From: Ralstonia sp. UNC404CL21Col | GTDB lineage: Bacteria > Pseudomonadota > Gammaproteobacteria > Burkholderiales > Burkholderiaceae | Assembly: GCF_000620465.1 (NCBI RefSeq) | Contig: NZ_JIBE01000003.1 | Span: forward strand, 682,001 to 746,000 | Reading direction: 5' to 3' | DNA: 64,000 nt | Shown: in pieces, positions 23,835 to 40,807 of the stretch | How the letters are laid out: each line of letters opens with the position of its first letter | How positions within the stretch are numbered: position 1 is the stretch's first letter | The notes under the pieces: model-generated | The model's database searches: none | The model's input: only the letters and a program-made list of their open reading frames with translations | Told to the model about the DNA's origin: nothing | Made by a program: the position numbers and the translations under genes

Positions 23835-25778
23835 TTATACAGCGCACGCGGTAGTCGTGCACTGCGGCTCATAGCCGTGTACGCGCTCCTTCAATATCTC
23901 TTTGATTGACGGCTCATCGCCTTCTTCGGCGGCGACGCGCATCCTCGCTAGGACGGGAGCGAACTGGGGCCACGGTACGTAGTGTTCGCGCGCTTTCATG
24001 ATACGCTCGTGAACGGTACCTTCAGGATTATCTCCAATAAGTAACTCTTCATACAATTTTTCGCCTGGGCGCAGTCCAGTGACTTTGATTTCAATATCTC
24101 CAGCAGGATGATCAACATCACGAACTGCTAGACCGGAGAGTTGCACCATGCGTCGGGCCAGATCCATGATCTTGACAGGTTGTCCCATATCGAGCACGAA
24201 CACTTCTCCACCATGCGCCATTGCTCCTGCTTGCAGCACCAGCTGTGCTGCCTCGGGAATTGTCATGAAGTAGCGCGTCACCTCTGGGTGCGTCACAGTC
24301 AACGGACCACCCTCTTGTAGCTGTCGGCGGAACAGTGGAACAACGCTACCACTGCTGCCCAACACGTTGCCAAAACGCACCATCGCAAACACGGTGTGAT
24401 TTTGAACGACGTCGCGCGAACGACCGTGCAGCAGGCCGAAATCGATGGCATCACTGGCCGCAAGCGCTTGCAATACCAACTCCGCCATTCGCTTCGTTGC
24501 GCCCATGATATTTGTCGGGCGGACAGCCTTATCGGTCGAAACGAGGACGAAGTACTTTGCATCGCTTTCCATGGCCGCACGCGCCATATTAAGCGTACCA
24601 AAGATGTTATTCAGCACGCCCTCAGATGGATTGCACTCCACAAGCGGAACATGTTTATACGCCGCCGCGTGATAGACCGTTTGCGGCTGATGGGCGCGAC
24701 AGACCTCGCGCAAACGGTCAAGATTCGCCACGCTGGCCAACAACGGCACGATTTCAACAGACAGTCGATGTTCGGCCCGCAGCCCTTCCAACTCGCGGTG
24801 AATGCTGTACAACCCGAACTCGCTATGTTCCACAAGTACCAGCTTGTGCGGCCGCTCGAGTAATATCTGGCGACACAGCTCGCTGCCGATACTGCCGCCG
24901 GCACCGGTTACAAGAACCGTCTTGTTGGCGAGATTACGCGCCAACAGCGCTTCATCGGGAGGCACAGGAGCACGTCCCAAGAGATCTTCGATGTCCAGCT
25001 CTTGGATGTCACGCACCGTGACGCGGCCTGATGCCAGATCGACCATGCCTGGCAATGTACGAACGTGGACCGGTAGCTCTCGCAGTTTCGCAATGATTGC
25101 ATTACGTCGGGCCCGCCCAAGCGATGGCACAGCGAGCAAGATATCGGTAATACCCATCCGCTCCACCGCCTCAGCCACATCCTCCGGCCCGATGATGTCC
25201 AACCCATTAATGGTGCGGCCGACCTTTGAGCTGTCATCGTCGATATAGCCCAGCAGCACAAATTCACGCACTACGGTGAGCGCCAAAGCCGTCTGCACGC
25301 CCGCCTCACCCGCACCGTAAATCAGCAGCCGGCCGACACCGTGATGGTGTCCCTTGCCCAACTGGCCAGCCAGCCAAAACCGCGCCGTCGCCCGACTACC
25401 ACTGACTAACAACAGGAACAGGATAGGTTGTATCAACCCGATGCTTCTTGGCACGCCATCCCACTTGAACGCAAGGATAGCAAGAAAGAACACTACGCCA
25501 TACAAGCCCACCGCCTTGGCAGTGCTCGCCAAAGCGGACATACCGGTGTAGCGAAAAATCGCCCGGTATAGACCGAAACGTACAAACAGGGGAAACGCAA
25601 GCAGCGGAGCAAGCAGGTAAACGCACTTCTGCTGCAACTGAGGTAATCCTGCTTGATCGATTCGCAGGTAGAACGCAATCCAAACCGAAACGAGAGACAG
25701 TACCAAATCCAGCAGGACCACTAGGGCGCGCTTGACGGGGCGGGGAAGTGCCAGCAGGGGAATCGTAAGCTTGTTCAC
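23835..25778 (-). CDS. Membrane UDP-GlcNAc 4,6-dehydratase, WbpM/PglF (CapD) family
   Basis: The 647-residue protein has about four N-terminal membrane helices (to residue ~130), a first Rossmann domain (LLIYGAGEAGVQTA, 151-164), and a C-terminal SDR dehydratase domain with TGAGGSIGSE (291-300). STDKAVRPTNIMGATKR (414-430) gives the Met425-x3-Lys429 pair that replaces Tyr-x3-Lys in this family. It would make UDP-2-acetamido-4-keto-2,4,6-trideoxyglucose, the precursor of QuiNAc, FucNAc, bacillosamine and related sugars. It is the last gene of the minus-strand operon and overlaps the aminotransferase by 4 nt, which points to 4-amination of its product. Confidence 0.92.
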   Translation of the reverse strand: MNKLTIPLLALPRPVKRALVVLLDLVLSLVSVWIAFYLRIDQAGLPQLQQKCVYLLAPLLAFPLFVRFGLYRAIFRYTGMSALASTAKAVGLYGVVFFLAILAFKWDGVPRSIGLIQPILFLLLVSGSRATARFWLAGQLGKGHHHGVGRLLIYGAGEAGVQTALALTVVREFVLLGYIDDDSSKVGRTINGLDIIGPEDVAEAVERMGITDILLAVPSLGRARRNAIIAKLRELPVHVRTLPGMVDLASGRVTVRDIQELDIEDLLGRAPVPPDEALLARNLANKTVLVTGAGGSIGSELCRQILLERPHKLVLVEHSEFGLYSIHRELEGLRAEHRLSVEIVPLLASVANLDRLREVCRAHQPQTVYHAAAYKHVPLVECNPSEGVLNNIFGTLNMARAAMESDAKYFVLVSTDKAVRPTNIMGATKRMAELVLQALAASDAIDFGLLHGRSRDVVQNHTVFAMVRFGNVLGSSGSVVPLFRRQLQEGGPLTVTHPEVTRYFMTIPEAAQLVLQAGAMAHGGEVFVLDMGQPVKIMDLARRMVQLSGLAVRDVDHPAGDIEIKVTGLRPGEKLYEELLIGDNPEGTVHERIMKAREHYVPWPQFAPVLARMRVAAEEGDEPSIKEILKERVHGYEPQCTTTACAV

Positions 25779-26950
25779 CGAGAGGCCCGTCCCAATACGT
25801 CCGCGAGTACGGCACAGGTCTTAGCAATCTCAGTATCGGTCAAGGTCGGGTGCACCAAGAACATGATGCTTGTCTCACCCAGCGAACGGGCCACGGGTAG
25901 CGGGTCAGCGGGACGCCAACCCGTTCGATCAAAGGCCCGTTCAAGATAGACCTCCGAACACGAACCTTGATAGCTGGGTACCCCTGCGGCGTTGATCTCA
26001 TTGATGATGCGATCGCGGGTCCAGCCATCCGCTAGGTGCTGCGGCTGAACGTAAACGTAGCACTTGTAGTGACCGTGCACGTTATCTGCTGGCACAGCCG
26101 GTACCTTTACGACAGCGTGTTCTCGACACACAGCCCAAATTGCCTCTGCGTGCGCCGTGCGGCGCGCTGTCCAGTCGGGCATGCGGCGCAGTTGAATCCG
26201 CCCAATCGCGGCCTGCATCTCCAGCATCCGCCAGTTGGTGCCAAAGCTTTCATGCAGCCATCGGAAGCCGGGAGGATGCTGCCGCTCATACACAGCCTCA
26301 TAGCTCTTGCCGTGATCCTTGAACGACCACATAGCGCGCCACAGTGCCTCGTTGTTCGTGGTCACCATGCCGCCCTCACCGCCAGTCGTCATGATCTTAT
26401 CCTGGCAAAAGCTCCATGCGCCAACATGGCCAATGGAGCCGACGCTACGACCCCGATATCGCGCGCCATGGGCCTGCGCGCAGTCCTCAATGACCTTGAA
26501 ACCATGGGTGTCAGCCAACGCCATGATGGGGTCCATATCGCACGGCCATCCCGCAAGATGGACGCAGATGACGGCTTTGGTGCGTGGCGTAACAACCCGA
26601 GCGATCGTCTCTGCCGACAAGTTGCCGCTGTCCGGATCGACATCGGCAAACACCGGGGTTGCGCCCGCATTCACTACGCAGGAGATACTGGCGATGAAGG
26701 TGCGGGGCGTCACGATGACTTCATCGCCGACGCCGACGCCGAGGGCCTTGAGGGCAACATCCAATGCTAGCGTGCCGTTAGCCAATACCACGGCGTAGCG
26801 GGTGCCTGCCCATTGGGCAAATTCTTTTTCAAACTCTCGACATTCCGTGCCGGTCCAGTAGTTGACCTTGTTGGAGAGCAGCACGCTCTGGACTGCATCA
26901 GCCTCTTCTTGCGTAAAGCTTGGCCACGGAGAGAATGGGGTGTTCAACAT
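25775..26950 (-). CDS. DegT/DnrJ/EryC1-family nucleotide-sugar aminotransferase
   Basis: The 391-residue PLP enzyme has the internal aldimine lysine at Lys185 (AWSFCQDKIMTTGGEGG) and the EDCAQAHGA motif of sugar 4-aminotransferases such as PglE and perosamine synthetase. It overlaps the WbpM/PglF-like gene by 4 nt and the HAD gene by 7 nt. By position it would aminate the 4-keto product of the dehydratase to a UDP-4-amino-2-acetamido-2,4,6-trideoxyhexose. The stereochemistry (gluco or galacto) cannot be read from sequence. It is only distantly similar to the WecE enzyme encoded 11 kb upstream in the same operon. Confidence 0.85.
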   Translation of the reverse strand: MLNTPFSPWPSFTQEEADAVQSVLLSNKVNYWTGTECREFEKEFAQWAGTRYAVVLANGTLALDVALKALGVGVGDEVIVTPRTFIASISCVVNAGATPVFADVDPDSGNLSAETIARVVTPRTKAVICVHLAGWPCDMDPIMALADTHGFKVIEDCAQAHGARYRGRSVGSIGHVGAWSFCQDKIMTTGGEGGMVTTNNEALWRAMWSFKDHGKSYEAVYERQHPPGFRWLHESFGTNWRMLEMQAAIGRIQLRRMPDWTARRTAHAEAIWAVCREHAVVKVPAVPADNVHGHYKCYVYVQPQHLADGWTRDRIINEINAAGVPSYQGSCSEVYLERAFDRTGWRPADPLPVARSLGETSIMFLVHPTLTDTEIAKTCAVLADVLGRASR

Positions 26951-27600
26951 AGAATGTCAGGCAGTTCAGTTAGCGTATCAATCCATTGGTTCGGAAGCAT
27001 TTCGGAAACCAGTCCCTCGCAGACCTGCGAGTGAATATTCCGCTCATCCCCCCTTAAGCCGATTGTCCTCCAGCGCAGCCTATTCGGCGCAATGAAGTCC
27101 TTCATTGGATTATCTGCCACGTAAACATACTCGCGAGCAGTATAATCCTTCATGATTATCTCAAATCGAAGAGAATCCGGCTTTGCCGAACAATGATCCT
27201 CAGAAATATAAACAGGCAATCGCTGCAACCCGAGCGCAAGGATCTTCTTCCTTTGCGTCACAGAGCGGCCATCTGTCAATACAATAATGGGATATTTTTG
27301 TTCCAACTGCTTGAGTACATGCTGCACGTCTTCCGTCAAAAAGATGTCCGGTGTATGTAGTCGGTATATCCAGAGAAGGGATTCCTTGACACTCAACGGC
27401 AAACCTGCACGCTGGCACAGCAATTCAAGGACATCTCCGTCGCCTCGATCTTCTTCAAGATCGCGGGCCAATGATTTACCGTACAGCACCTCGATTTCTC
27501 TACATACGGCTCGAAACCCAGATTGCCGATAATCCGCTTCTTTGTATAGTGTGTCGTCCAGATCCAGAACGACAACTTTTTCCGATTTAGATATCGTCAC
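26944..27600 (-). CDS. HAD-superfamily hydrolase of the polysaccharide locus
   Basis: The 218-residue protein contains all four HAD motifs: DLDDTLYKE (Asp13 and Asp15), VLTDGRS, a lysine in SAKPD, and VADNPMKDFIAPNR. The cap is helical and small, as in phosphatases of subfamily I. It starts with GTG inside the end of the ATP-grasp gene (14-nt overlap), and it overlaps the aminotransferase gene by 7 nt, so it is co-translated with both. It could dephosphorylate an intermediate made or used by the ATP-grasp partner. The substrate is unknown. Confidence 0.8.
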   Translation of the reverse strand: MTISKSEKVVVLDLDDTLYKEADYRQSGFRAVCREIEVLYGKSLARDLEEDRGDGDVLELLCQRAGLPLSVKESLLWIYRLHTPDIFLTEDVQHVLKQLEQKYPIIVLTDGRSVTQRKKILALGLQRLPVYISEDHCSAKPDSLRFEIIMKDYTAREYVYVADNPMKDFIAPNRLRWRTIGLRGDERNIHSQVCEGLVSEMLPNQWIDTLTELPDILC

Positions 27601-28549
27601 GCACCAGCACCTTGGCGTCGTAGCGCAGCATCAACAGGTTGTTTTCCCATTGATCAAAGAACTCGATGTCGTGCCCCAAGAGGTATTCATCAATAAGCCA
27701 CCCTGGATAGTTTGCGCCGGCGCTGTATGAAAGTGGATAACCACCGCCAAAACGCGGATTGATTTCGAGCGCCGCAAACCGGCCTGTGGCCTCATTGGCA
27801 AATACTTGAACCGTAATGCAGCCGCGCGCCCCTTGCAGCTTAGCGAGACGAGGCAGCAGGTACTCATAGACGAAATGCCGACGAGTCGCGCCTTTACTGA
27901 CCTCACCTCCACGCACTTCGATGCGCTGACGAGGTACGGCACATGTCAGCCGGCCCATGCGGTCGTAATAGGCGTCCACCGTATACTCGACATGAGTCGA
28001 GTCAATGTACTCCATGAACATCATCTTCTCGTCTTCAAGCATCGCCGAAGTCAACGCGTCCGGACGAGGGAGCAACGCCGCACCAACACTGCAACTCCCA
28101 TCGTATGGTTTCGCGAAGCATGGAAACGTGATTGCCGAGCGCTCATAGATTCGCGGTGTATCGATACCAAGCTCGGTGAAAAGATCGGACGTTTTCCGCT
28201 TATCGCGGCACAACGCAACCAACGATTCATCGGAGATGATGAGATGTATGCCTGCTGCTGCGAAGCGGCTTTGGTTGTGGGCAAGGAGTAACAATTCCGT
28301 ATCGATGGTAGGAACGACCAAGCGGATACCTTCTGCAAGGCAGGTTTCGAGCAGAAAATCAATATATCCGGGGTCGGTAATCCGAGGAGCCTTGAAAGCA
28401 CGGTCAGCGATCTGGCACGCGGCGGACAGGCGTGGCTGTAAGTCCGTAGCGCAAACATGACCCTCTAGGTTCCTCTTGGCCATCTCAATCTTGAACGCTT
28501 CCACAAGCTCCACGCGCCGGCCTGCGGATAAAAGCAACACGTTATTCAT
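27587..28549 (-). CDS. ATP-grasp carboxylate-amine ligase-like protein
   Basis: The 320-residue protein has an N-terminal Rossmann-like pre-ATP domain (NNVLLLSAGRRVELVEAF), a nucleotide-binding lobe (FPCFAKPYDGSCSVGAALL), and a metal/ATP region FAALEINPRFGGGYPLSYSA with the Glu-x-Asn pair. This is the pattern of CarB/PylC-like ATP-grasp enzymes that join a carboxylate to an amine via an acyl phosphate. The start at 28549 is chosen by homology-like N-terminus; it overlaps the PglC-like gene by 8 nt. In the operon it sits where PglD acetyltransferases sit in bacillosamine pathways. I infer that it may acylate the 4-amino sugar, but this is unproven. Confidence 0.8.
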   Translation of the reverse strand: MNNVLLLSAGRRVELVEAFKIEMAKRNLEGHVCATDLQPRLSAACQIADRAFKAPRITDPGYIDFLLETCLAEGIRLVVPTIDTELLLLAHNQSRFAAAGIHLIISDESLVALCRDKRKTSDLFTELGIDTPRIYERSAITFPCFAKPYDGSCSVGAALLPRPDALTSAMLEDEKMMFMEYIDSTHVEYTVDAYYDRMGRLTCAVPRQRIEVRGGEVSKGATRRHFVYEYLLPRLAKLQGARGCITVQVFANEATGRFAALEINPRFGGGYPLSYSAGANYPGWLIDEYLLGHDIEFFDQWENNLLMLRYDAKVLVRDDI

Positions 28550-29153
28550 CTTTGTCCTGAGAATTCTTTGTTCCCTGGAAAACGGGCATGGTTGCATCGC
28601 CAGGGGCGGAAATGCCATCCCGCACAACGACCTTACGAACCGTCATCCATATGATCCTGATGTCCAACAGCACCGAAGCGTGGTCGACATACCAAACGTC
28701 GTGTGCGAACTTTTCTTCCCAACTTAGCGCGTTCCGTCCGTTGACCTGCGCCCACCCGGTAACACCAGGTCGAACTTCGTGGCGACGTGCCTGCTCCGGC
28801 GTATAGAGCGGCAAGTACTCCATCAGCAATGGGCGCGGCCCTACTAGACTCATATCGCCTTTGAGGACATTCCACAGCTCAGGCAACTCGTCAAGGCTCG
28901 TAGACCGCAGAAACCGCCCAAAAGACGTCAAGCGCTGCGCATCCGGCAACAAAGCGCCATCCGGACCCCGAGCGTCGGTCATTGTCCGAAACTTGATCAT
29001 GCGGAACGGCTTGCCGCGCATACCCGGACGCACCTGGGAAAACAGCACCGGTTTGCCCAGCTTGACCCGCACCAGCAACGCCAACAGCAGCAAAGGGATC
29101 GCGAGAAGAACCAGCGCTACAGCGGCCACGCAAACGTCGAAACAGCGCTTCAT
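28542..29153 (-). CDS. PglC-type initiating phosphoglycosyl transferase (bacterial sugar transferase)
   Basis: The 203-residue monotopic phosphoglycosyl transferase moves a sugar-1-phosphate from a UDP-sugar to undecaprenyl phosphate, starting the repeat unit. It has one re-entrant N-terminal hydrophobic segment (FDVCVAAVALVLLAIPLLLL), KFRTM, the catalytic Asp-Glu pair in SLDELPELWN, and GDMSLVGPRPLL. The short length without extra membrane helices matches PglC/WeeH rather than WcaJ/WbaP. PglC enzymes use UDP-diacetamido-trideoxyhexoses, which fits the neighbouring dehydratase and aminotransferase. It overlaps the wbuB-like gene by 4 nt. Confidence 0.9.
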   Translation of the reverse strand: MKRCFDVCVAAVALVLLAIPLLLLALLVRVKLGKPVLFSQVRPGMRGKPFRMIKFRTMTDARGPDGALLPDAQRLTSFGRFLRSTSLDELPELWNVLKGDMSLVGPRPLLMEYLPLYTPEQARRHEVRPGVTGWAQVNGRNALSWEEKFAHDVWYVDHASVLLDIRIIWMTVRKVVVRDGISAPGDATMPVFQGTKNSQDKDE

Positions 29154-30385: not shown

Positions 30386-31516
30386 TCAGTACTTTTTCCA
30401 AACCACGCGGTTTACGTAGTCGGTATAGCTATGGATGATACGCAGCACCTTGTCCGACACGTTGGGCATGCTGTAGTCGGCGACCTGCCGCAACAACCGC
30501 TCGCCGCCGCGCGGCTGGCTATCAAGAATTGCTAGACCTTGCATAACGCGATCAGATTCCAGCCCAACCATCATTACAGCCGCTTCCTCCATGCCTTCGG
30601 GGCGCTCATGTGCTTCACGAAGATTCAGCGCGGGGAAGTTCATGATCGACGACTCTTCATTGATCGTGCCACTGTCCGATAAGACTGCCTTGGCCGAAAG
30701 CTGGAGCTTGTTGTAGTCCGTAAAGCCCAAGGGCTTGAGGAGTTGCACGTTCGCATGGAACTTTGCACCCATCGCGTCCACCCGCTTCTGGGTGCGAGGA
30801 TGGGTCGACACGATCACGGGCAAGCCGTAGTGCTCCGCCACTGTATTAAGAACGCTAACCAACTTCCCGAAATTGGCGTCCGAATCGATGTTCTCTTCGC
30901 GATGTGCGCTCACCACAAAGAATTTGCCAGCGTCCAGCCCGAGGCGCACAAGCACATCTGACTTTCCAATGCCCGGCAGATAGTGGGCCAACACTTCAGC
31001 CATCGGGCTGCCGGTCTTGATGACCATGTCCGGCGGCAATCCTTCGCGCAACAGGTACTCACGCGCGATCGAGCTATAGGTCAAATTGATGTCGGCAGTG
31101 TGGTCCACGATACGGCGATTCGTCTCTTCGGGAACGCGCAGGTCAAAGCACCGGTTACCTGCCTCCATATGAAAGATGGGAATCTTGCGACGCTTGGCCG
31201 GAATAACGGAGAGGCAGCTATTAGTATCGCCAAGTACAAGCAGGGCCTCGGGCTTCTCGCGACCCAGCAGCTCGTCCATGGCGATGATGATCTTGCCGAT
31301 GGTTTCGGCGGCACCGCCGCCGGCGGCGTTCAGAAAGTGATCCGGTTTGCGGATGCCCAAGTCATCAAAGAAAATCTGGTTGAGTTCGTAGTCGTAGTTT
31401 TGGCCGGTATGCACCAGCACATGTTCACAATGCTCATCCAAGCGTGCCATCACGCGGGACAAACGGATGATCTCTGGCCGCGTACCGACCACGGTCATGA
31501 CTTTGAGCTTTTTCAT
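30386..31516 (-). CDS. fnlC: UDP-N-acetyl-L-fucosamine synthase (UDP-HexNAc C2-epimerase)
   Basis: The 376-residue member of the WecB superfamily has VVGTRPEIIRLSRVMARL, HTGQNYDYELNQIFFDDLGI, GDTNSCL, and HMEAGNRCFDLRVPEETNRR. The FDLRVPEE and AGGGAAETIGKII stretches distinguish the FnlC/WbjD branch from ordinary UDP-GlcNAc 2-epimerase. It performs the last step of UDP-L-FucNAc synthesis, following FnlA and FnlB encoded immediately upstream. It is soluble and cytoplasmic. Confidence 0.92.
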   Translation of the reverse strand: MKKLKVMTVVGTRPEIIRLSRVMARLDEHCEHVLVHTGQNYDYELNQIFFDDLGIRKPDHFLNAAGGGAAETIGKIIIAMDELLGREKPEALLVLGDTNSCLSVIPAKRRKIPIFHMEAGNRCFDLRVPEETNRRIVDHTADINLTYSSIAREYLLREGLPPDMVIKTGSPMAEVLAHYLPGIGKSDVLVRLGLDAGKFFVVSAHREENIDSDANFGKLVSVLNTVAEHYGLPVIVSTHPRTQKRVDAMGAKFHANVQLLKPLGFTDYNKLQLSAKAVLSDSGTINEESSIMNFPALNLREAHERPEGMEEAAVMMVGLESDRVMQGLAILDSQPRGGERLLRQVADYSMPNVSDKVLRIIHSYTDYVNRVVWKKY

Positions 31517-31549
31517 CAGTAGCTATGTATGGAGTCGATGGCCTCCGCT

Positions 31550-32677
31550 TTACAGCGGGCAAGCATAAGTGTCCGGGCGAGTCCGATCAAAAATTTCATT
31601 GGCCCACAGCATCACGATCATCTCGTCTTCGCCGATGTTGGTGATGTCATGCGTCCACCCAGGCACTGTTTCCACAATCTCTGCCTTCTCACCACTGGTA
31701 ACCAGCTCATGCGTCTCACCGGTATGCATATGGCGGAACTTGAAGCGGGCCTGCCCCTTGATCACTAGGAACTTCTCGGTCTTGGTATGGTGATAATGCC
31801 CGCCACGGGTGATGCCCGGATGGGCCGTAAAAAACGAAAACTGCCCGCAATCCGGCGTCTTCAGCATCTCGACAAAAACCCCGCGCGGATCACCATACTG
31901 AGGCACCGTATAGGCAAAAGAATCGACGGGCAGATAGCTCACGTAGGTTGCATACAACGCGCGAACCAAGCCGGTGCCGACACGGTCGATCACCAAGGAT
32001 TCACGACTGTTGCGGAACGATTGTATGTACGCTGCCAGTTCGCCCACCGTGGCGGTGTATTGCGGCGACACTACGGCAAAGCCATCCGCATCGACCTGAG
32101 CGTCGGCGCCATCCATCAATTGCACGAAGCGATCGATGACGTCGTCCACATACACAAGCGTCACCGGTGCTGCCGGATCATTCACCTGAATAGGAAGGCC
32201 GCGTGCCACGTTGTAGCAAAACGTGGCAACCGCCGAGTTGTAGCTGGGTTTGCACCACTTGCCGAACACATTTGGTAACCGAAACACATGGACGGGGATC
32301 CGATGACTGTCGCGGGCAGCAAACAAGGCATCCTCTGCACCTCGCTTGCTATGTCCGTAGGCATTATCGTGGTTTGCCTGCGTAGACGATGTATAGATGA
32401 CCGGAATTCTGCGTCCAGTTGCGTCGGCCTCATTGCACAGCGCCTGGCATAGCGCCTGGGTGAGCCCAGCATTGCCGCTTGCGAACTCTTGAGGATCCTG
32501 TGGCCGATTGACTCCCGCTAAGTGGAAAACAAAATCCGCCTCACGCAGCAGTGTCGGCAAATGCTCAATCTCATCGGCGCGCGTGAAACAGTGCACTTGG
32601 ACGTCCTTCCGCTCGGACAGGAACAGCCGCAGATTCTTGCCGATAAAACCATCGGCTCCGGTAATCAATACGTTCAT
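31550..32677 (-). CDS. fnlB: UDP-2-acetamido-2,6-dideoxy-L-hexulose reductase (WbjC/FnlB)
   Basis: The 375-residue bifunctional-looking protein has an N-terminal SDR domain (MNVLITGADGFIGKNLRLFL; GHSKRGAED supplies the Lys region) and a C-terminal cupin-like RmlC-type domain (about 250-375, with GGHYHHTKTEKFLVIKGQA). This arrangement is characteristic of WbjC/FnlB, which epimerises at C3 and reduces C4 in the UDP-L-FucNAc pathway. GGAGGA upstream of ATG 32677 fixes the start. It lies 4 nt after fnlA. Confidence 0.92.
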   Translation of the reverse strand: MNVLITGADGFIGKNLRLFLSERKDVQVHCFTRADEIEHLPTLLREADFVFHLAGVNRPQDPQEFASGNAGLTQALCQALCNEADATGRRIPVIYTSSTQANHDNAYGHSKRGAEDALFAARDSHRIPVHVFRLPNVFGKWCKPSYNSAVATFCYNVARGLPIQVNDPAAPVTLVYVDDVIDRFVQLMDGADAQVDADGFAVVSPQYTATVGELAAYIQSFRNSRESLVIDRVGTGLVRALYATYVSYLPVDSFAYTVPQYGDPRGVFVEMLKTPDCGQFSFFTAHPGITRGGHYHHTKTEKFLVIKGQARFKFRHMHTGETHELVTSGEKAEIVETVPGWTHDITNIGEDEMIVMLWANEIFDRTRPDTYACPL

Positions 32678-32681
32678 GCAG

Positions 32682-33719
32682 TTAGTCCTCCGCCACTGCG
32701 TGCTCTCCGCGCGCAATGCGTTGCATGAAATCAAGCTTCAGGAGCAGCTTCTTCATGCCCTCCACATCCAGACGCGTGGTGTTGTGAGAGTTGTAGTCTT
32801 CACCATGCGCGCTCTGCGTCAGGCGTTGCTCCCCTTCTTCCACAAACTTTGCGTAGTTGAGGTCGCGGCCATCAGGCGGCACACGGAAGTAGTCGCCCAT
32901 ATCTTCCGCGCACGCCATTTCCTCGCGACTGAGAAGCGCCTCGTAGAGTTTTTCCCCATGACGCGTGCCGATAACATGTACGGGATGCTCAGGCTTACGC
33001 ATCAGTTCCAGGATGGCTTTGGTCAAGACATCGACGGTCGCCGCCGGCGCCTTCTGCACAAAAATGTCGCCGTTGTTGCCGTGTTCGAAGGCATAGAGCA
33101 CGAGATCCACCGCATCAGCCAACGTCATCATGAAGCGCGTCATCGTCGGGTCTGTCACCGTAATCGGGTTTCCAGCGAGGACCTGGTCGACGAACAGCGG
33201 GATAACCGAGCCGCGCGAGGCCATCACATTGCCGTAGCGGGTGCCGCAGATGACGGTATTGGTGCCTTCTAGGTTACGGCTGGCAGCCACCATGACCTTT
33301 TCCATCAGCGCTTTGCTGATGCCCATTGCGTTGATGGGATAAACGGCCTTGTCGGTGCTCAGGCACACCACACGTTTCACCCCCGCATCCACAGCGGCAT
33401 TCAGAACGTTCTCGGTCCCCAGTACGTTCGTGCGCACTGCTTCCATCGGGTGGAACTCGCAGGATGGCACTTGCTTGAGCGCCGCTGCGTGATAGACGTA
33501 GTCCACCCCGCGCATGACTGCATCTACACTGCACCGATCCCTGACGTCGCCGATGTAGAACTTGAGCTTAGGGCTGGCATACCGCTTACGCATGTCGTCC
33601 TGCTTTTTCTCGTCTCGGCTGAAGACGCGAATCTCGTCAATCTCGCTGTCGAGGAACCGCTTGAGGACAGCATTGCCGAAGGAGCCGGTACCACCGGTAA
33701 TCGTTAGAATTCCCTTCAC
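32682..33719 (-). CDS. fnlA: UDP-GlcNAc 4,6-dehydratase/5-epimerase (FnlA/WbjB)
   Basis: The ~345-residue soluble SDR starts the UDP-L-FucNAc pathway by 4,6-dehydration and C5-epimerisation of UDP-GlcNAc. ITGGTGSFGNAVLKRFL is the NAD site and STDKAVYPINAMGISK gives the Met-x3-Lys catalytic pair of the inverting dehydratases. GTG 33719 gives the family length and overlaps the wzy stop (GTGA); an ATG at 33752 would add 11 residues. It should not be confused with the larger membrane dehydratase at the end of the operon, which keeps the D-configuration. Confidence 0.93.
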   Translation of the reverse strand: MKGILTITGGTGSFGNAVLKRFLDSEIDEIRVFSRDEKKQDDMRKRYASPKLKFYIGDVRDRCSVDAVMRGVDYVYHAAALKQVPSCEFHPMEAVRTNVLGTENVLNAAVDAGVKRVVCLSTDKAVYPINAMGISKALMEKVMVAASRNLEGTNTVICGTRYGNVMASRGSVIPLFVDQVLAGNPITVTDPTMTRFMMTLADAVDLVLYAFEHGNNGDIFVQKAPAATVDVLTKAILELMRKPEHPVHVIGTRHGEKLYEALLSREEMACAEDMGDYFRVPPDGRDLNYAKFVEEGEQRLTQSAHGEDYNSHNTTRLDVEGMKKLLLKLDFMQRIARGEHAVAED

Positions 33720-34945
33720 TGGAGTGATCCCTTGATTTGATTTGTGGAGCACGTGCCGATCGATACAAACGCTGCAGCGAGCAGAAGCATGAACGCGACA
33801 GAAGCACGGCTAGCCGTTATTACGGGGCCGCCTATCGAGCCCGCAACCGCCAGAACTAGCAGACAACCGATTAGTTTACCCCCTGCAGTCGCTCGATAGC
33901 GAATCGCCGCTATTGCGAGCACCACAAGAAACGCCAGATAGCCCATGATGGCCAATACGCCACCTTGATAGAAGTACTCTAAGTAACCGCTATCCAGCGG
34001 CAAGTGAGATCCCAATCCGCGACCAAGAATCCATCTATCGCGATCCCAGAGATCAGCAAACAACTGAGAGACCCCCGTTTCGCTGGAACCCAATCTTCCT
34101 GCTGAAATCGCCATGAGAATTCCGCCTTCGCGGTACAGATCTGCGAGGGAGTCGAAGTAGGCTGGATTAAGCCCCGAAATCACCACAGGAATCGCGATCA
34201 CGCCGCCAACCAGCATGAGCAGAACAGCCCAGAGTCCAACTAGGTTGATCCACGTGGCAAACAACAGCGCCGTGACAACGCCCAGGAGAGAGAAGTTCTT
34301 TGAGAAGGAAATCATCCCGCCCGCAACGATCACCACCAAGCCAAGTGCGGTCACGACAATGCCGCGTCGGGCGTACTTGATCAGATAGACCTGCGCCAAC
34401 AGCGCAACGCTGTAGAAAATTCCTGCCTCCAGCGGCTGGTTGAACAAGCCCGGGTACCTTCCGATCGCGACTGAATTCTCCCAGACCGAGCCGGAGTCCT
34501 GCTGCACCCATGGCGCGAGAAGACTTGACAAGTCGATTAGCGCACTCAGGACAGCACACAAGCCTGCAGGGATAGCAATCCAGACAATGGCCCTGGATGT
34601 CGTTTCAAGCGCTTCAGGCACACGCGACAGCAGAATTACAAAGCTAAATAGCATTAGTACCGGCATGCACAGCCGCAAAAACATTGCCTCAGGTCGCGCA
34701 TCAAAACCCGTGATATCAGAAAACATGCTGCCAAGCACCACCCCACCCAAACCAACCCATAGCACAAATACGGCAAGAAACAACAGTACGCGAGAATTAG
34801 AATTCAACCGGACATCCTTGCCAGACATGACCAGCGCCAGCCCAGCGAGAACAGGCACGACGATATGCTCGGGCCGCAGACCGCTGAACAGGTAGGGCAT
34901 CATCGCCGACGCCATGATCGCAAACGGCATCATTCTTCTAGTCAT
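33716..34945 (-). CDS. wzy: Wzy-type O-antigen polymerase
   Basis: The 409-residue protein has ten or more hydrophobic helices and a long periplasmic loop (about residues 250-310, ending DRWILGRGLGSHLPLDSGYLEY). That loop resembles the Wzy_C/O-antigen ligase-type loop with the GxG...H pattern. As the only polytopic protein of this kind in the locus besides the flippase, it is the best candidate polymerase for undecaprenyl-linked repeat units in the periplasm. Sequence identity among Wzy proteins is low, so the call rests on topology and context; a ligase role (WaaL) is less likely inside this locus. Confidence 0.75.
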   Translation of the reverse strand: MTRRMMPFAIMASAMMPYLFSGLRPEHIVVPVLAGLALVMSGKDVRLNSNSRVLLFLAVFVLWVGLGGVVLGSMFSDITGFDARPEAMFLRLCMPVLMLFSFVILLSRVPEALETTSRAIVWIAIPAGLCAVLSALIDLSSLLAPWVQQDSGSVWENSVAIGRYPGLFNQPLEAGIFYSVALLAQVYLIKYARRGIVVTALGLVVIVAGGMISFSKNFSLLGVVTALLFATWINLVGLWAVLLMLVGGVIAIPVVISGLNPAYFDSLADLYREGGILMAISAGRLGSSETGVSQLFADLWDRDRWILGRGLGSHLPLDSGYLEYFYQGGVLAIMGYLAFLVVLAIAAIRYRATAGGKLIGCLLVLAVAGSIGGPVITASRASVAFMLLLAAAFVSIGTCSTNQIKGSLQ

Positions 34946-34951
34946 AGCTGC

Positions 34952-36199
34952 TTAAAAAGACTGGTTGCGTCTCTCCGCAAAGGCGGACGACACGCCAAGC
35001 CTGTGCGCCAAGGCCATAGCAGCCAAAGAGATAGCGAGACGGACCAGTTCACACGAACCCAAGCGAGGCGTTTTCATGCTTGCCGTTTGATCAAGCAACA
35101 ACAGCCCGTCAACCGTAGCCGCCACCGAAAACATGTGAGATTTCGCCCGACAAGCTCGGCCCATTGCGAGCCGATATTCAGTATCCGCCAGGAGTCGATC
35201 AACAAGATCCTGCATCGATATCTTCGGAATTGGCAGGTTGTCCTCGTTGTAAGACAACCCGCTGACATCTGAAAGTAGTCCGTAGGTTTCCGGGGTGGGA
35301 ATCGACTCAATGCCAATGATGGCAGGCACACCCAGCGCTGCAGCCTCGATCAATGCGGTTCCGCTGCCGACAAACAACGTTGCCGTTTCAATAGTCTCGA
35401 CCAGGTTGGCGTAGGGCAACGGTCCAAGCAACCGCACATGTTGCTCGATTTTCAGTCGAGCTATCAATGCATGTAGCGTTGATTCCTCCTTGCCCGCCCC
35501 ATAGATTTCATATCGAAGACCCGGATACTTTCCCGCGAGCTTGGCAACCACTCCGATCATGTGTGCGTTGTACGTCTTGAAAGCCTCTAGATTGCCAATG
35601 GAGACAATACGGTTGGTGTCGGACGACTTCTTGGTGACTTCAATACGCGAGAGATCAATTCCGATTGGTACCGTGGTTGAGCCGCTATAGTCGAGATTAA
35701 AAAAGTCTCCGTAATTATCGCGCGTACTCTCGTTAAAAAAAACAACATTGCTGGTCGGCAATCGAGCAAAAAGGCGTTGCGTTGCTCTCGCAAAATAAAA
35801 GGGAATTTCCGCAAAAATGAATTCGTTCTGGTGGTAAATACCCACGGTTACTCGACTACGTTTACGCCACCCAGCAAGGCGGAGCGCAAAGATAAGGCTG
35901 AACACGCCCATTGCATGCAACTGCTCGCCGAATCCAAACAACGCCGAATTGAGCCTCCGCCAAGCCACGAGACCGAACGTTCCGAAATACGAGCGAAACA
36001 GCTTTCCTTTGTCCAGCAAGAAATCGTCGAGCCAAAATACTGTCGCGTAGCCTTCAAGTTCTGCCAGCAACGCTGGTTCAAAGTGGCGGCGCAACACTAG
36101 GACGGCACTACGCTGACCGCGCTTTGCCAATTCACGGCAGGTTCGAATCAGAAACGTGGTGCCGCCATTCATTGCCAGCACATTGGCAACAAAGATCAT
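34952..36199 (-). CDS. GT4-type glycosyltransferase
   Basis: The 415-residue GT-B glycosyltransferase has the C-terminal donor domain with RIVSIGNLEAFKTYNAHMIG, YEIYGAGKEE, RLLGPLPYANL, and SGTALIEAAALGVPAIIG (the E-x7-E type region). The N-terminal GGTTFLIRTCRELAKRG resembles acceptor-binding GT4 domains. Donor and linkage cannot be deduced. By elimination it adds L-rhamnose or Fuc4NAc to the growing repeat unit. It overlaps the flippase gene by 4 nt (ATGA). It is distinctly AT-rich. Confidence 0.8.
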   Translation of the reverse strand: MIFVANVLAMNGGTTFLIRTCRELAKRGQRSAVLVLRRHFEPALLAELEGYATVFWLDDFLLDKGKLFRSYFGTFGLVAWRRLNSALFGFGEQLHAMGVFSLIFALRLAGWRKRSRVTVGIYHQNEFIFAEIPFYFARATQRLFARLPTSNVVFFNESTRDNYGDFFNLDYSGSTTVPIGIDLSRIEVTKKSSDTNRIVSIGNLEAFKTYNAHMIGVVAKLAGKYPGLRYEIYGAGKEESTLHALIARLKIEQHVRLLGPLPYANLVETIETATLFVGSGTALIEAAALGVPAIIGIESIPTPETYGLLSDVSGLSYNEDNLPIPKISMQDLVDRLLADTEYRLAMGRACRAKSHMFSVAATVDGLLLLDQTASMKTPRLGSCELVRLAISLAAMALAHRLGVSSAFAERRNQSF

Positions 36200-37485
36200 C
36201 TACCACCTCGTTGGTAAAGCGCGAGGCCAACAATGGCTATACAGAGGTATACGAAATAAGTCAGTGCGTAGACTTGCGCAACTTGCTGCAAACCGCCTCC
36301 GTGGTTCAATACAAGATAGGTCAATGTTCCATAAAGTCCTGCCTGCAAGACCTCTGCTCCGATGTACAGACCAACGGCCGCTTTTGCGACACCGAGGAAT
36401 CCGATCACATAGGCAAGAACTCGACAGAAATCACCGACCAGTTGCCAGCCAAACAATGCCGACATGCCGGAAAACGCGTCGGAAAACAACAGCTTGATAA
36501 CAAATCCTTGCAGGAAGTAGAGCACGCAGGCGAACACTACAAAAGCAAGCCCAATGCGCAGGAGCATGGTCCTAACTTCACGCACCACAGCATCGGTGTC
36601 GAACAAGCCTGACAGTCGAGGCATGAAGTTCGTCGCCAGAAACACAGAAAAAAATCCTAGATAGGCTCCTGACAATCGGGTCATGGCCTGCCAGAGTCCT
36701 GCTGCTTCGATGCCTAGTAGCTGGATCAGGTGATTGCGGATGGCAATCTCTGTCATCGGGAACACGCTAGCTGAGACTATCAACATGACGCTGAAGCGAC
36801 CAAGTTTCCGGACGTCCGACGCTCGGATTCGAAGCGGCATCAGGCGAGTGACAGGAGAGCGCGCCGCTACCCACAGAGCAGGAATGCCCGTACACGAGAT
36901 CACCAACATCAGTGCCAGCGCTGCGCCTTGGATGCCGCAGCACGTGATTAGCAGGTAAACAACGGGGAGCGAGCCCACGTAACCAACTATCGAGATGATT
37001 GCGAACAACGCACTCTTCTGCTGCCCGTTCGCAATGGCAATCACCGCGGTACCGACAAAACAGAATAGCTGTGCTACCCCCAGAGCTGGCAGCAACCACG
37101 CATAACGCTGGTCACCAAAAAGCGCTGTAGAAATCGCCGCCCTGAAGACCACGCTCACGCAGAGAATCAACAGGGAGAAAATCAAACCATATGCCGCTGC
37201 GGCACCAATGAAGCGCAGCGACCGAACTGGCTTGCCTCGATACTCTGCAACATACTTTGTAATACCGTTACCGATACCGCCGCCAGCAAATACAGAGACC
37301 ATTGTTGTCAAGCTCATAAAGTGCCCTAGGACACCCATGCCTGGCGGACCGATGAACACAGCAATCATCTTGACGACGAGCAGATTCACGGCCATCCGCA
37401 AACCTTGCGCGGTAACCGCGGCGACGGCTGGCGACGCCAACATGAGCGATGGCAATCTACCTGTACGAACCATACGAGGCGACAT
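36196..37485 (-). CDS. wzx: WzxE-like flippase (MOP superfamily)
   Basis: The 429-residue membrane protein with about 12 helices moves undecaprenyl-PP-linked oligosaccharide across the inner membrane. It resembles the enterobacterial common antigen flippase WzxE more than typical O-antigen Wzx: GGGIGNGITKYVAEYRGKP, EAAGLWQAMTRLSGAYLGFF and FGWQLVGDFCRVLAYVIGFL align with equivalent stretches I recall in WzxE. This fits the presence of wecE and a wecD-like gene immediately upstream (6-nt gap), because ECA contains Fuc4NAc. Confidence 0.87.
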   Translation of the reverse strand: MSPRMVRTGRLPSLMLASPAVAAVTAQGLRMAVNLLVVKMIAVFIGPPGMGVLGHFMSLTTMVSVFAGGGIGNGITKYVAEYRGKPVRSLRFIGAAAAYGLIFSLLILCVSVVFRAAISTALFGDQRYAWLLPALGVAQLFCFVGTAVIAIANGQQKSALFAIISIVGYVGSLPVVYLLITCCGIQGAALALMLVISCTGIPALWVAARSPVTRLMPLRIRASDVRKLGRFSVMLIVSASVFPMTEIAIRNHLIQLLGIEAAGLWQAMTRLSGAYLGFFSVFLATNFMPRLSGLFDTDAVVREVRTMLLRIGLAFVVFACVLYFLQGFVIKLLFSDAFSGMSALFGWQLVGDFCRVLAYVIGFLGVAKAAVGLYIGAEVLQAGLYGTLTYLVLNHGGGLQQVAQVYALTYFVYLCIAIVGLALYQRGGR

Positions 37486-37491
37486 CCGACG

Positions 37492-38613
37492 TCAGCAAGC
37501 GGCGATGACTGCGTCAGCGACAAGATCGACGTCGCTATCACTCATCTCGAAGTAAAGCGGAAGCCGCACCAGACAATCGGAGAATCGGTCGCTGTTCGGC
37601 AATGGACGACCATCATGCTGCTGTGTGAAATATGGGCTCCCGTGCAACGAGAGGTAATGAAACACTGCGTGAATCTGCTGCTCTTTGAGACTTGAAATCA
37701 ATGCACTGCGCTGCGCCAAGTCACCGCATACCAGATAAAACATATGCGCGTTGTTGGTCGCATACTCTGGGATCACGGGCAGCGAGATGCCCCGCCCTGG
37801 AAGCTCGGCAGCAAAGTGATTCCAATAGCGTTGCCAAATAGCCTTTCGCCGCGCCTGAATCAGCTCGAGATTTTCCAGCTGTGCAAACAGGTAGGCCGCG
37901 ACGATATCCGATGGCAAGAACGAGGAACCAACGTCCACCCATCCATACTTGTCAACCTCACCGCGAAAGAATGCCGAACGATTGGTCCCCTTCTCGCGAA
38001 TGATTTCCGCCCGCGGCACGAACGATGGCACGTTGACGGTAAGCAGGCCGCCCTCGCCCGCTATAACGTTCTTCGTTTCGTGAAAGGAGAATGCGCCAAA
38101 TTGCCCTATAGCACCCAGCGGGGTACCTTTGTAGTATGAATCAATCGCTTGGGCCGCGTCTTCCACAACCGCGATGCCATGCCGATTTGCAATAGACATG
38201 ACCTTATCCATATCACACGCGACACCCGCATAATGAACCACAACGATGGCGCGCGTTCTTGGGGTAATCAATAACTCAAGCTGCTCAACATCGATGTTCG
38301 GGTTAATCGGTTCACTGTCAGCAAAAACCAGGCTGGCACCCCGCAACGCAAAGGCATTGGCACTCGAGACAAAGGTAAACGAAGGAACAATAACCTCGTC
38401 ACCTGGTTTGATATCCAACAACAGTGCCGACATCTCCAGCGCATCAGTGCACGATGTTGTCAGAAGCGCCTTACCGAAACCGAAGCTGCGCTCAAAGAAA
38501 TCATGGCACTTCCTGGTAAACATCCCGTCACCAGATATCTTGCCAGACGCAACAGCCTGCGCGATGTAGACCAACTCACGACCGTGGAGGTATGGCTTAT
38601 TAAACGGAATCAT
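37492..38613 (-). CDS. wecE: dTDP-4-amino-4,6-dideoxygalactose transaminase (WecE/RffA)
   Basis: The 373-residue PLP enzyme aminates dTDP-4-keto-6-deoxyglucose to dTDP-4-amino-4,6-dideoxy-D-galactose. Landmarks match WecE: SGDGMFTRKC, LLTTSCTDALEMSALLLDI, HYAGVACDMDKVM, and FSFHETKNVIAGEGG with Lys181, then EIIREKGTNRSAFFRGEVDK. Its substrate comes from RmlA and RmlB of the same operon. It overlaps the downstream-acting acetyltransferase gene by 14 nt. It is the best family match among the aminotransferases of the locus. Confidence 0.92.
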   Translation of the reverse strand: MIPFNKPYLHGRELVYIAQAVASGKISGDGMFTRKCHDFFERSFGFGKALLTTSCTDALEMSALLLDIKPGDEVIVPSFTFVSSANAFALRGASLVFADSEPINPNIDVEQLELLITPRTRAIVVVHYAGVACDMDKVMSIANRHGIAVVEDAAQAIDSYYKGTPLGAIGQFGAFSFHETKNVIAGEGGLLTVNVPSFVPRAEIIREKGTNRSAFFRGEVDKYGWVDVGSSFLPSDIVAAYLFAQLENLELIQARRKAIWQRYWNHFAAELPGRGISLPVIPEYATNNAHMFYLVCGDLAQRSALISSLKEQQIHAVFHYLSLHGSPYFTQQHDGRPLPNSDRFSDCLVRLPLYFEMSDSDVDLVADAVIAAC

Positions 38614-39337
38614 CGTTCACCCACACATGAAACGTGTAAAAACTGTTGAGGGGTTCCATGCCAACCCGGCACCAGTTTTTTTGAACTACCACATTGGTAA
38701 TTTGCGTTGACACGACCATTCGTCCGAATTTACGCTCAACCCCCCAATTTTGCGACAATTTCATCAGATCGAGATAGAGCCCTTTACCCTGATGCTCGGG
38801 AGCAACCCCAAACAACACGCCTTCAAATGTCGATGAATTTATTATTTTTAAAGTCGCAAAAGCAGCAATCTGTTGGCCAGCCTTAATCAAAATAACGTCG
38901 TCTGCCAAATCTCCTTTGCGGCAAGAATTCAGGGCCCATGACGAATACACTGCATCACAAGCGCCCCGATCCAAACGAGGGTCGGCATGATAGTGGCCGA
39001 AATATCCTTTGAATGATTCCGCTGCAATGTGGCCAACGGCATCGATGTCGCTGGCTTCAACCAGACAGGCTCGGTAACCATCGGGCAGGTCATCCGAATA
39101 CTGCTCTATCCTCTTCTTTTGGTAGTAGACCAACGTATCTGAAAGAATCCCACCTCTACGCTCCAACTCCTGCGCCAGCGCAAGTTCGCTTGTGGGAAGT
39201 CGGACGATAACCATTTCGGCCTTACCCTCTCGCGCGGCGGACAGCAACGCGTCCACATCGTCGCCGGACTCGAGCTTTGCCTTTGCAATCACATAGCCAA
39301 ATCGTTCTTCGTCGATCTTTGATAGATAGAAATCCAT
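38600..39337 (-). CDS. WecD-like dTDP-4-amino-sugar N-acetyltransferase (GNAT)
   Basis: The 245-residue protein has an N-terminal WecD-like segment (MDFYLSKIDEERFGYVIAKA) and a C-terminal GNAT domain (about 95-235) with the acetyl-CoA loop VAPEHQGKGLYLDLM. By position next to wecE it would acetylate dTDP-4-amino-4,6-dideoxygalactose to dTDP-Fuc4NAc. Overall identity to E. coli WecD appears low, so the symbol is withheld. AAAGGCGGAA before the ATG supports the start. Confidence 0.75.
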   Translation of the reverse strand: MDFYLSKIDEERFGYVIAKAKLESGDDVDALLSAAREGKAEMVIVRLPTSELALAQELERRGGILSDTLVYYQKKRIEQYSDDLPDGYRACLVEASDIDAVGHIAAESFKGYFGHYHADPRLDRGACDAVYSSWALNSCRKGDLADDVILIKAGQQIAAFATLKIINSSTFEGVLFGVAPEHQGKGLYLDLMKLSQNWGVERKFGRMVVSTQITNVVVQKNWCRVGMEPLNSFYTFHVWVNDDSV

Positions 39338-39370
39338 TTCCGCCTTTACATTCTTGTGCTTCTGGACACG

Positions 39371-39919
39371 TTACCAACCAATTCCAATATTCTTTATGCC
39401 GGGAGCACCAGCATCCTTCGCCGAAAGCAAGGGAGCACCGCCGTGCAACGGCCACTCAATACCAAGATCAGGATCATTCCACGCAATACACCGCTCGTGC
39501 TCGGGCGCATAGTAGTCCGTGACCTTGTACAGAAAATCAGCCGACTCGCTTAGCACCAAAAAACCATGCGCGAACCCGGGGGGAATCCAGACCTGTTTCA
39601 GGTTGTCTTCGGTTAGTTCTTCGCCGACCCATCTTCCAAACGTGGCCGACCCCTGCCTCAGATCGATAGCTACGTCGAATACCGCGCCCTTGGCCACACG
39701 CACAAGCTTTCCCTGTGGTTGGTCCAATTGAAAATGAAGCCCTCGCAGCACCCCTTTTTTTCCGCGGGTATGGTTGTCCTGCACAAACGCTACATCGAGC
39801 CCAGTGGCATTAAGAAACGTGGTCTTGTTGTAGCTCTCGTAGAGGAGGCCACGTGCATCCGTAAAAACGCAGGGCTCAATTACCAATACGTCTGGGATGG
39901 CTGTCATGGTGACCTTCAT
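39371..39919 (-). CDS. rmlC: dTDP-4-dehydrorhamnose 3,5-epimerase
   Basis: The 182-residue cupin epimerase converts dTDP-4-keto-6-deoxyglucose to dTDP-4-dehydro-L-rhamnose. It contains RGLHFQLDQPQGKLVRVAKG with the catalytic His, DVAIDLRQGSATFGRW and PPGFAHGFLVLSE. The start MKVTMTAIPDV is kept because homologues begin at the same place; an ATG four codons in is possible. It lies 3 nt after rmlA. Confidence 0.95.
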   Translation of the reverse strand: MKVTMTAIPDVLVIEPCVFTDARGLLYESYNKTTFLNATGLDVAFVQDNHTRGKKGVLRGLHFQLDQPQGKLVRVAKGAVFDVAIDLRQGSATFGRWVGEELTEDNLKQVWIPPGFAHGFLVLSESADFLYKVTDYYAPEHERCIAWNDPDLGIEWPLHGGAPLLSAKDAGAPGIKNIGIGW

Positions 39920-39922
39920 GGA

Positions 39923-40795: not shown

Positions 40796-40807
40796 AGTGT
40801 CGTTGGG

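What the first reader, a model, noticed from the sequence alone, without database searches (positions are those of the whole stretch)
23835..29153. Possible new amino-sugar acylation route: ATP-grasp ligase plus HAD phosphatase in place of PglD
In bacillosamine-type pathways the order is dehydratase (PglF), 4-aminotransferase (PglE), acetyltransferase (PglD), then PglC. Here the PglF-like, PglE-like and PglC-like genes are present and overlapping, but no acetyltransferase is. Between them sit an overlapping ATP-grasp protein (27587-28549) and a HAD hydrolase (26944-27600). ATP-grasp enzymes join a carboxylate to an amine. I infer that the 4-amino group may be coupled to an amino acid or other carboxylate by ATP, with the HAD protein removing a phosphate before or after. 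The overlaps of 4, 7, 14 and 8 nt argue for a single functional unit.
Basis: partly seen in the sequence, partly recalled or inferred. Interest (0 to 1): 0.75.

Follow-up and report, generated by a model that had tools for sequence, protein, structure and literature searches.

The report
Likely glyceramide-sugar O-antigen cassette
A five-gene set in a surface-polysaccharide locus most likely makes a rare amino sugar decorated with glyceric acid instead of acetate, using a ligase already known from Neisseria pilin sugars plus an unexplained partner phosphatase.

Summary
In detail: five overlapping minus-strand genes (23835-29153) encode a PglF-type dehydratase, 4-aminotransferase, HAD phosphatase, ATP-grasp ligase and PglC-type transferase, with no PglD. 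The proposed mechanism is largely right, but the route is not new: Neisseria PglB2 is this transferase plus ATP-grasp and makes the 4-glyceramido sugar GATDH. The window's ATP-grasp shares a strongly supported clade with the Neisseria ones, and one genome of that genus has a fused transferase/ATP-grasp followed by HAD, aminotransferase and dehydratase. The aminotransferase is a near relative of Pcryo_0638, which makes UDP-QuiNAc4N. Of 30 aminotransferase loci read, 14 have PglD nearby, 2 (window included) have ATP-grasp+HAD, none has both. Most likely product: Und-PP-QuiNAc4N-glyceramide, first sugar of an O-antigen that also holds L-FucNAc. The open part is the HAD: adjacent to ATP-grasp in 69 of 80 loci and fused in 3, yet I found no function for it in print. 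It probably frees glycerate from a phosphoglycerate, or dephosphorylates the ligated product. 11 of 80 loci also carry a PglD-like gene, one in a triple fusion, so "replacement" is not universal.

The parts
23835..25778 (-). PglF-type UDP-GlcNAc 4,6-dehydratase with N-terminal membrane part
   Evidence: Pfam Polysacc_synt_2 at 288-597; best solved relative C. jejuni WlaL/PglF 5bju, 307 bits over residues 260-612; membrane part by reading
25775..26950 (-). DegT-family 4-aminotransferase, expected product UDP-2-acetamido-4-amino-2,4,6-trideoxy-D-glucose (UDP-QuiNAc4N)
   Evidence: Pfam; 7l7x Pcryo_0638, 636 bits over residues 1-384; reaction of Pcryo_0638 read in PMC8040287
26944..27600 (-). HAD phosphatase with a helical cap; D13, D15, D110, K140, D163, D168 present in 43 of 43 relatives aligned, position 109 T or S in all
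27587..28549 (-). ATP-grasp carboxylate-amine ligase, homologue of the C-terminal domain of Neisseria PglB2
28542..29153 (-). PglC-type phosphoglycosyl transferase (first sugar onto undecaprenyl phosphate)
   Evidence: Pfam Bac_transf; N,N'-diacetylbacillosaminyl-1-phosphate transferase 8g1n, 230 bits
29150..30382 (-). GT4 glycosyltransferase, probably adds L-FucNAc to the first sugar
   Evidence: next to FnlA/B/C-type genes; related gene in the same position in Acinetobacter terrae L031 (516 bits); the acceptor is inference
30386..33752 (-). UDP-L-FucNAc pathway (FnlC-, FnlB/WbjC- and FnlA-like)
   Evidence: the FnlB-like gene is over its NCBIfam cut-off, the FnlA-like one is not (619.9 against 730); the FnlC-like one is over the cut-off of the 2-epimerase family wecB
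33716..42779 (-). rest of the O-antigen cluster: possible Wzy, glycosyltransferase, Wzx, WecE-type aminotransferase, GNAT acetyltransferase, RmlC/A/D/B-like genes
   Evidence: Wzy and Rml names by reading (no Pfam match for the Wzy candidate; no family search made on the Rml genes)

Best explanation
The cassette is a relative of the Neisseria PglB2 pathway, with transferase and ligase as separate genes, working inside an O-antigen locus. PglF-type dehydratase and aminotransferase turn UDP-GlcNAc into UDP-QuiNAc4N (strong homology). The ATP-grasp enzyme activates a small carboxylate with ATP and joins it by an amide bond to the 4-amine, instead of acetylation by PglD (homology and slot exchange). 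By the Neisseria precedent the acid is glyceric acid, giving a 4-glyceramido sugar (inferred). The HAD phosphatase either makes D-glycerate from 2- or 3-phosphoglycerate for the ligase, or removes the phosphate after a phosphoglycerate has been ligated (inferred). The PglC-type transferase loads the sugar onto undecaprenyl phosphate, and the next enzymes add L-FucNAc and further sugars (inferred).
For: ATP-grasp relatives were found in 6 of 399 genomes of the order, its own and five others all in one genus. That genus is inferred to be Neisseria: L004 is 96.4% identical to N. sicca L015 over 3,957 bases. Tree of 55 ATP-grasps: window in a 16-row clade, support 100/99, with N. sicca, N. weixii, Vibrio, Photobacterium, Billgrantia, Oceanisphaera and others. 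L121 holds one 527-residue ORF, transferase 10-207 plus ATP-grasp 209-527, then HAD, aminotransferase, PglF; Pfam agrees on both domains. PMC11130364 (passages) describes PglB2 as ATP grasp plus phosphoglycosyl transferase and gives GATDH as its product. PMC6959607 (passages and section 7) gives GATDH spectra for N. oralis and N. mucosa and names an N. oralis HAD hydrolase in its figure of the pgl region. In that genus (46 genomes): ATP-grasp only 20, PglD family only 19, both 5 (over 600 kb apart in 3, on different contigs in 2), neither 2 (68% and 81% complete); Fisher p 1.5e-6, not corrected for kinship. Aminotransferase orthologues in 32 of 369 genomes of the class; 30 loci read: PglD-like gene nearby in 14, ATP-grasp+HAD in 2 including the window itself, both 0, neither 14. 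HAD adjacent to ATP-grasp in 69 of 80 loci, fused in 3 more. Aminotransferase close to Pcryo_0638.
Against: No chemistry was tested. The acid is inferred from Neisseria, not from this organism. HAD is not next to ATP-grasp in 8 of 80 loci (L011, L013, L014, L017, L021, L046 at a contig end, L053, L065). In L021 it lies one gene further on. In the Billgrantia genomes (3 of 3) and those of L053 and L065 no HAD homologue was found at E 1e-8, and Oceanisphaera L011 has only a remnant with a stop. So the HAD is not always needed, or is replaced. PglD-like genes (60 bits or more) lie in 11 of 80 loci, some fused to the ATP-grasp. 7 of 60 long loci have the pair with no aminotransferase or transferase within 10 kb. 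Outside the order, only 3 other genomes of 369 (class, E 1e-30) and 1 other of 398 (phylum) have the ATP-grasp, and one of these (L009) shows no HAD beside it.
Confidence: 0.7

Rival explanations
1. Same ligase chemistry but with an amino acid (for example alanine, serine or glycine) rather than glycerate; in lineages with PglD as well, the amino group of that residue would then be acetylated by the PglD-like domain, which would explain PglD together with ATP-grasp and HAD.
For: The fold is shared with PylC and with an L-amino-acid ligase. Triple fusion ATP-grasp-HAD-PglD in L072 and PglD-ATP-grasp fusion in L087. Amino-acid-decorated amino sugars are recalled from the literature, from no call.
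Against: The window's clade is that of the Neisseria ATP-grasps and its genome has no PglD over cut-off. A HAD phosphatase is not obviously needed for an amino acid unless it is phosphoserine.
Confidence: 0.17
2. The 4-amine stays free, as in sugars of the FucNAc4N type, and the ATP-grasp/HAD pair acts on another sugar or metabolite.
For: 14 of 30 aminotransferase loci have neither a PglD-like gene nor ATP-grasp within the 1.5-kb flanks. 7 of 60 long loci have the pair without aminotransferase or transferase within 10 kb.
Against: Overlapping position between transferase and aminotransferase, fusion with the transferase in L121, and the exchange with PglD.
Confidence: 0.07
3. The GNAT protein at 38600-39337 acetylates the QuiNAc4N 4-amine.
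For: It is the only acetyltransferase among the cluster proteins given to a family search.
Against: It overlaps a WecE-type aminotransferase that is over its cut-off (548 against 375 bits), and its best family is the matching dTDP-Fuc4N acyltransferase, though under cut-off (53.5 against 219). It lies about 9.4 kb from the cassette.
Confidence: 0.04

Closest known systems
Neisseria pgl core locus with pglB2 (PglB2 = phosphoglycosyl transferase + ATP-grasp; product GATDH)
   Same: Same five functions in the same order, with the ATP-grasp in one clade; separate transferase and ATP-grasp genes also occur in that genus (L002, L015, L122, L123).
   Different: Here the cassette sits in an O-antigen cluster with FnlABC-, Wzx- and Rml-type genes instead of a protein O-glycosylation locus. 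No formyltransferase gene follows HAD, as it does in L002. The product was not determined.
Campylobacter bacillosamine pathway PglF-PglE-PglD-PglC
   Same: Dehydratase and first transferase are homologous; the same UDP-QuiNAc4N intermediate is expected.
   Different: No PglD. The aminotransferase is of the Pcryo_0638 type, which PMC8040287 reports as 27% identical to PglE.
Psychrobacter cryohalolentis Pcryo_0638/0637 (UDP-2,4-diacetamido-2,4,6-trideoxy-D-glucose)
   Same: Aminotransferase very close (636 bits).
   Different: Acyl group put on there by an acetyl-CoA enzyme (Pcryo_0637), here by an ATP-grasp.
Flavobacterium psychrophilum Qui2NAc4NR O-polysaccharide
   Same: L-FucNAc plus QuiNAc4N with a variable R group (PMC6519341, passages).
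   Different: That paper predicts that R is put on by PglD homologues, for R1 from an acyl carrier protein, not by an ATP-grasp.

Membership tests
PglB2-type glyceramide cassette | PglC-type phosphoglycosyl transferase directly joined to, or overlapping, the ATP-grasp | tested here: met
   8-nt overlap; families; fused counterpart in L121
PglB2-type glyceramide cassette | ATP-grasp homologous to that of PglB2 | tested here: met
   55-61% identity to 25 proteins of the genus inferred to be Neisseria; clade support 100/99. A named, published PglB2 record was not itself compared
PglB2-type glyceramide cassette | dehydratase and aminotransferase that make UDP-QuiNAc4N | tested here: met
   by homology only:
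PglB2-type glyceramide cassette | 4-glyceramido product (GATDH) | not testable with these tools
   needs NMR or mass spectrometry
Campylobacter-type bacillosamine pathway | PglD acetyltransferase | tested here: not met
   0 of 11 matches over the TIGR03570 cut-off in the genome
NCBIfam NF009405 (PRK12767 carbamoyl phosphate synthase-like) | score over the curated cut-off | tested here: met
   401.7 against 390 bits
HAD phosphatase | catalytic Asp pair, Thr/Ser, Lys and acidic motif IV | tested here: met
   D13, D15, K140, D163, D168 in 43 of 43, position 109 T in 41 and S in 2; which residues are catalytic is recalled
HAD phosphatase | activity on a phosphoglycerate | not tested
   no assay; fold neighbours include a sugar-acid phosphatase and phosphoglycolate phosphatases, which shows no substrate

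The most novel reading that the evidence does not exclude
The ATP-grasp/HAD pair is a widespread two-enzyme acylation module of bacterial surface sugars in which the ligase takes a phosphorylated hydroxy acid (phosphoglycerate) and the HAD removes the phosphate from the ligated sugar. Loci without HAD (Billgrantia, Oceanisphaera) would then carry a phosphoglyceroyl group, and lineages with PglD-ATP-grasp-HAD fusions would build a doubly acylated group. That would be an enzymatic logic not described, as far as I found, for bacillosamine-type sugars.
Probability: 0.2. Interest if true: 0.62.

Novelty: new member of a known kind. Interest (0 to 1): 0.45.

Why it matters
It places a Neisseria-type 4-acyl sugar pathway in O-antigen loci of other Proteobacteria, with related gene sets in Bacteroidota. 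It lets glyceroyl-decorated sugars be predicted from sequence, and it singles out a conserved phosphatase whose role has no published explanation that I found. The question of where the glyceroyl group comes from becomes directly testable.

Tried and rejected
Providencia alcalifaciens O22 D-glyceramide 2-phosphate was considered as a precedent for a ligated phosphoglycerate and rejected. In PMC6222762 (section 14) the glyceramide is joined through its phosphate to GalNAc, and the FucNAc4N amine is free.

Shewanella oneidensis flagellin sugar of 274 Da was considered because its nominal mass resembles GATDH and rejected. PMC3765264 (passages) reads it as a likely nonulosonic acid with oxonium ion C11H19N2O6+, and its one 'ATP-grasp' occurrence is in the reference list.

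Campylobacter di-O-methylglyceric acid on pseudaminic acid (PMC3068675, passages): a related acid, no ATP-grasp named there; left as an analogy.

Literature: searches gave no paper, in the rows listed, whose title or abstract start describes the cassette outside Neisseria or assigns the HAD; only the papers cited here by passages or sections were opened. The library lacks most subscription journals. The key paper for GATDH (PMC1976187), the one on pglB2 alleles (PMC3719539) and one on amidoligases (PMC3268129) are not held. PMC4569582 (passages) mentions a split pglB2 gene that keeps function; PMC1976384 was searched for five terms and had none. The meningococcal gene called ORF8 next to pglB2 (PMC11130364) was not identified.

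Foldseek of the HAD model was not run; only the VIA-align second look was obtained. No acceptor-pocket modelling was made. The first search (methyltransferase family) served only to learn where the window lies.
Full report
WHAT IS THERE. Five minus-strand ORFs overlap by 4, 7, 14 and 8 nt exactly as reported, and the next glycosyltransferase overlaps by 4 nt. In transcription order they are a PglC-type phosphoglycosyl transferase, ATP-grasp, HAD, DegT aminotransferase and PglF-type dehydratase. They end an O-antigen cluster that runs from Rml-type genes (about 42.8 kb) through a GNAT/WecE-type pair, Wzx, glycosyltransferases and L-FucNAc genes. In 2-kb steps G+C is 0.52-0.58 from 22 to 42 kb and 0.61-0.70 on both flanks. 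The ATP-grasp is in 1 of 16 held genomes of its genus and 1 of 200 of its family, in both cases the window's own, so the cluster is probably horizontally acquired (inference).

SUGAR BEFORE ACYLATION. The dehydratase matches C. jejuni WlaL/PglF (5bju, 307 bits). The aminotransferase matches Pcryo_0638 (7l7x, 636 bits over 384 residues). PMC8040287 (section 2 and passages) shows that Pcryo_0638 acts on UDP-4-keto-6-deoxy-GlcNAc and gives UDP-2-acetamido-4-amino-2,4,6-trideoxy-D-glucose. The Gln 183 that it names as contact to the 2-acetamido group lies in a stretch (SFCQDKIMTTGGEGG) that is identical in the window protein. The transferase matches the N,N'-diacetylbacillosaminyl-1-phosphate transferase 8g1n (230 bits). 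UDP-QuiNAc4N is therefore the expected intermediate.

NO PglD. In the whole genome 0 of 11 TIGR03570 matches reach the cut-off. Of 36 genomes or records holding related ATP-grasp loci (36 of the 80 loci were given to the call), 14 have a TIGR03570 match over cut-off somewhere and 22 have none.

THE PRECEDENT. Of 399 genomes of the order, 6 have the ATP-grasp at E 1e-20: the window's own and five of one genus. PMC11130364 (passages) describes PglB2 as ATP grasp plus phosphoglycosyl transferase, making glyceramido acetamido trideoxyhexose. PMC6959607 (passages and section 7) reports GATDH spectra for N. oralis and N. mucosa, says that PglB2's distinct C-terminal domain is proposed to transfer the glycerol moiety, and names a HAD hydrolase and a formyl transferase of N. 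oralis in its figure of the pgl region. L121, from that genus, holds a fused 527-residue transferase/ATP-grasp followed by HAD, aminotransferase and dehydratase. L002, L015, L122 and L123 have separate genes as in the window. The tree of 55 ATP-grasps (55 of those held, window first) puts the window in a 16-row clade (100/99) with Neisseria, Vibrio, Photobacterium, Billgrantia, Oceanisphaera and others; forks inside that clade are partly unresolved, and two distant rows (L008, L010) have long branches.

EXCHANGE WITH PglD. In that genus (46 genomes) 20 have only the ATP-grasp, 19 only the PglD family, 5 both and 2 neither (68% and 81% complete). In the 5 the two genes lie over 600 kb apart on one contig (3) or on different contigs (2). 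Fisher p is 1.5e-6, without correction for shared ancestry. In the class sample the aminotransferase orthologue is in 32 of 369 genomes. Of 30 loci read with flanks of 1.5 kb or less, 14 have a PglD-like gene, 2 have ATP-grasp+HAD (one is the window), none has both, 14 have neither. PglD-like here means a phmmer match to PglD-like proteins of L013, L027 and L043 that I picked by reading. In L092, L094, L102 and L114 the PglD-like gene stands exactly between transferase and aminotransferase, the place that ATP-grasp and HAD take in the window.

HOW GENERAL. Outside the order the ATP-grasp is rare at E 1e-30: 3 other genomes of 369 in the class and 1 other of 398 in the phylum. Of these, L007 has transferase, ATP-grasp, HAD and aminotransferase in order and L010 has aminotransferase, ATP-grasp and HAD; L009 shows no HAD. 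The genome-contig scan kept the best 80 of 566 relatives, so its counts describe near relatives only. Of these 80, HAD is adjacent on the same strand in 69 and fused in 3 (L027, L043, L072). An aminotransferase lies within 10 kb in 52, a transferase in 60, a PglF-like gene (over 60 bits) in 38; all three in 35, of which 30 have HAD adjacent and 3 a PglD-like gene of 60 bits or more, 7 if weaker hits count. Acinetobacter terrae L031 repeats FnlA-B-C, glycosyltransferase and the five genes in order.

AGAINST A SIMPLE REPLACEMENT. 11 of 80 loci have a PglD-like gene of 60 bits or more. In L087 it is fused to the ATP-grasp and in L072 to ATP-grasp and HAD. The Billgrantia loci (3) have no HAD, none was found in their genomes at E 1e-8, and two of the three have a PglD-like gene three genes after the ATP-grasp. 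In Oceanisphaera L011 only a HAD remnant with a stop remains. 7 of 60 long loci have ATP-grasp and HAD without aminotransferase or transferase within 10 kb. So HAD is usual but not essential, and the module may serve more than one sugar or acid.

CONCLUSION. Shown: anatomy, homology, gene-order conservation, exchange with PglD, intact expected catalytic residues. Inferred: acylation of the 4-amine (about 0.85), glycerate as the acid (about 0.65), the HAD making glycerate or dephosphorylating the product (about 0.5 for either). It is a new member of the PglB2 kind in an O-antigen setting. The unexplained part is the HAD.

Noticed in passing
window 23101-23661 (+): Fragment of a Mutator-family transposase (PF00872, 37 residues matched) beside the 3' end of the cassette; probably an insertion-sequence remnant.
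   Followed up: partly
L072:9935-12289: Triple fusion ATP-grasp-HAD-PglD in an uncultured Prevotellaceae genome.
   Followed up: partly
L087:9302-10957: PglD-ATP-grasp fusion in Parabacteroides goldsteinii, followed by HAD, aminotransferase and L-FucNAc-type genes.
   Followed up: partly
L008:1471-3914: ATP-grasp and weak HAD-like matches (25-29 bits) beside what look like nonulosonic-acid synthase and methyltransferase genes (those two named by reading); the module may also serve pseudaminic- or legionaminic-type sugars.
   Followed up: no
L002:3144-3944: Formyltransferase gene (Formyl_trans_N) after HAD in that Neisseria-genus locus; its substrate is unclear.
   Followed up: no
L011:1594-1740: Decayed HAD remnant with a stop, between ATP-grasp and aminotransferase in Oceanisphaera arctica; described only.
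   Followed up: partly
L034, L037, L054, L056, L060, L064, L090: ATP-grasp/HAD pairs without aminotransferase or sugar transferase within 10 kb, all in Flavobacteriaceae or their kin by record title.
   Followed up: no
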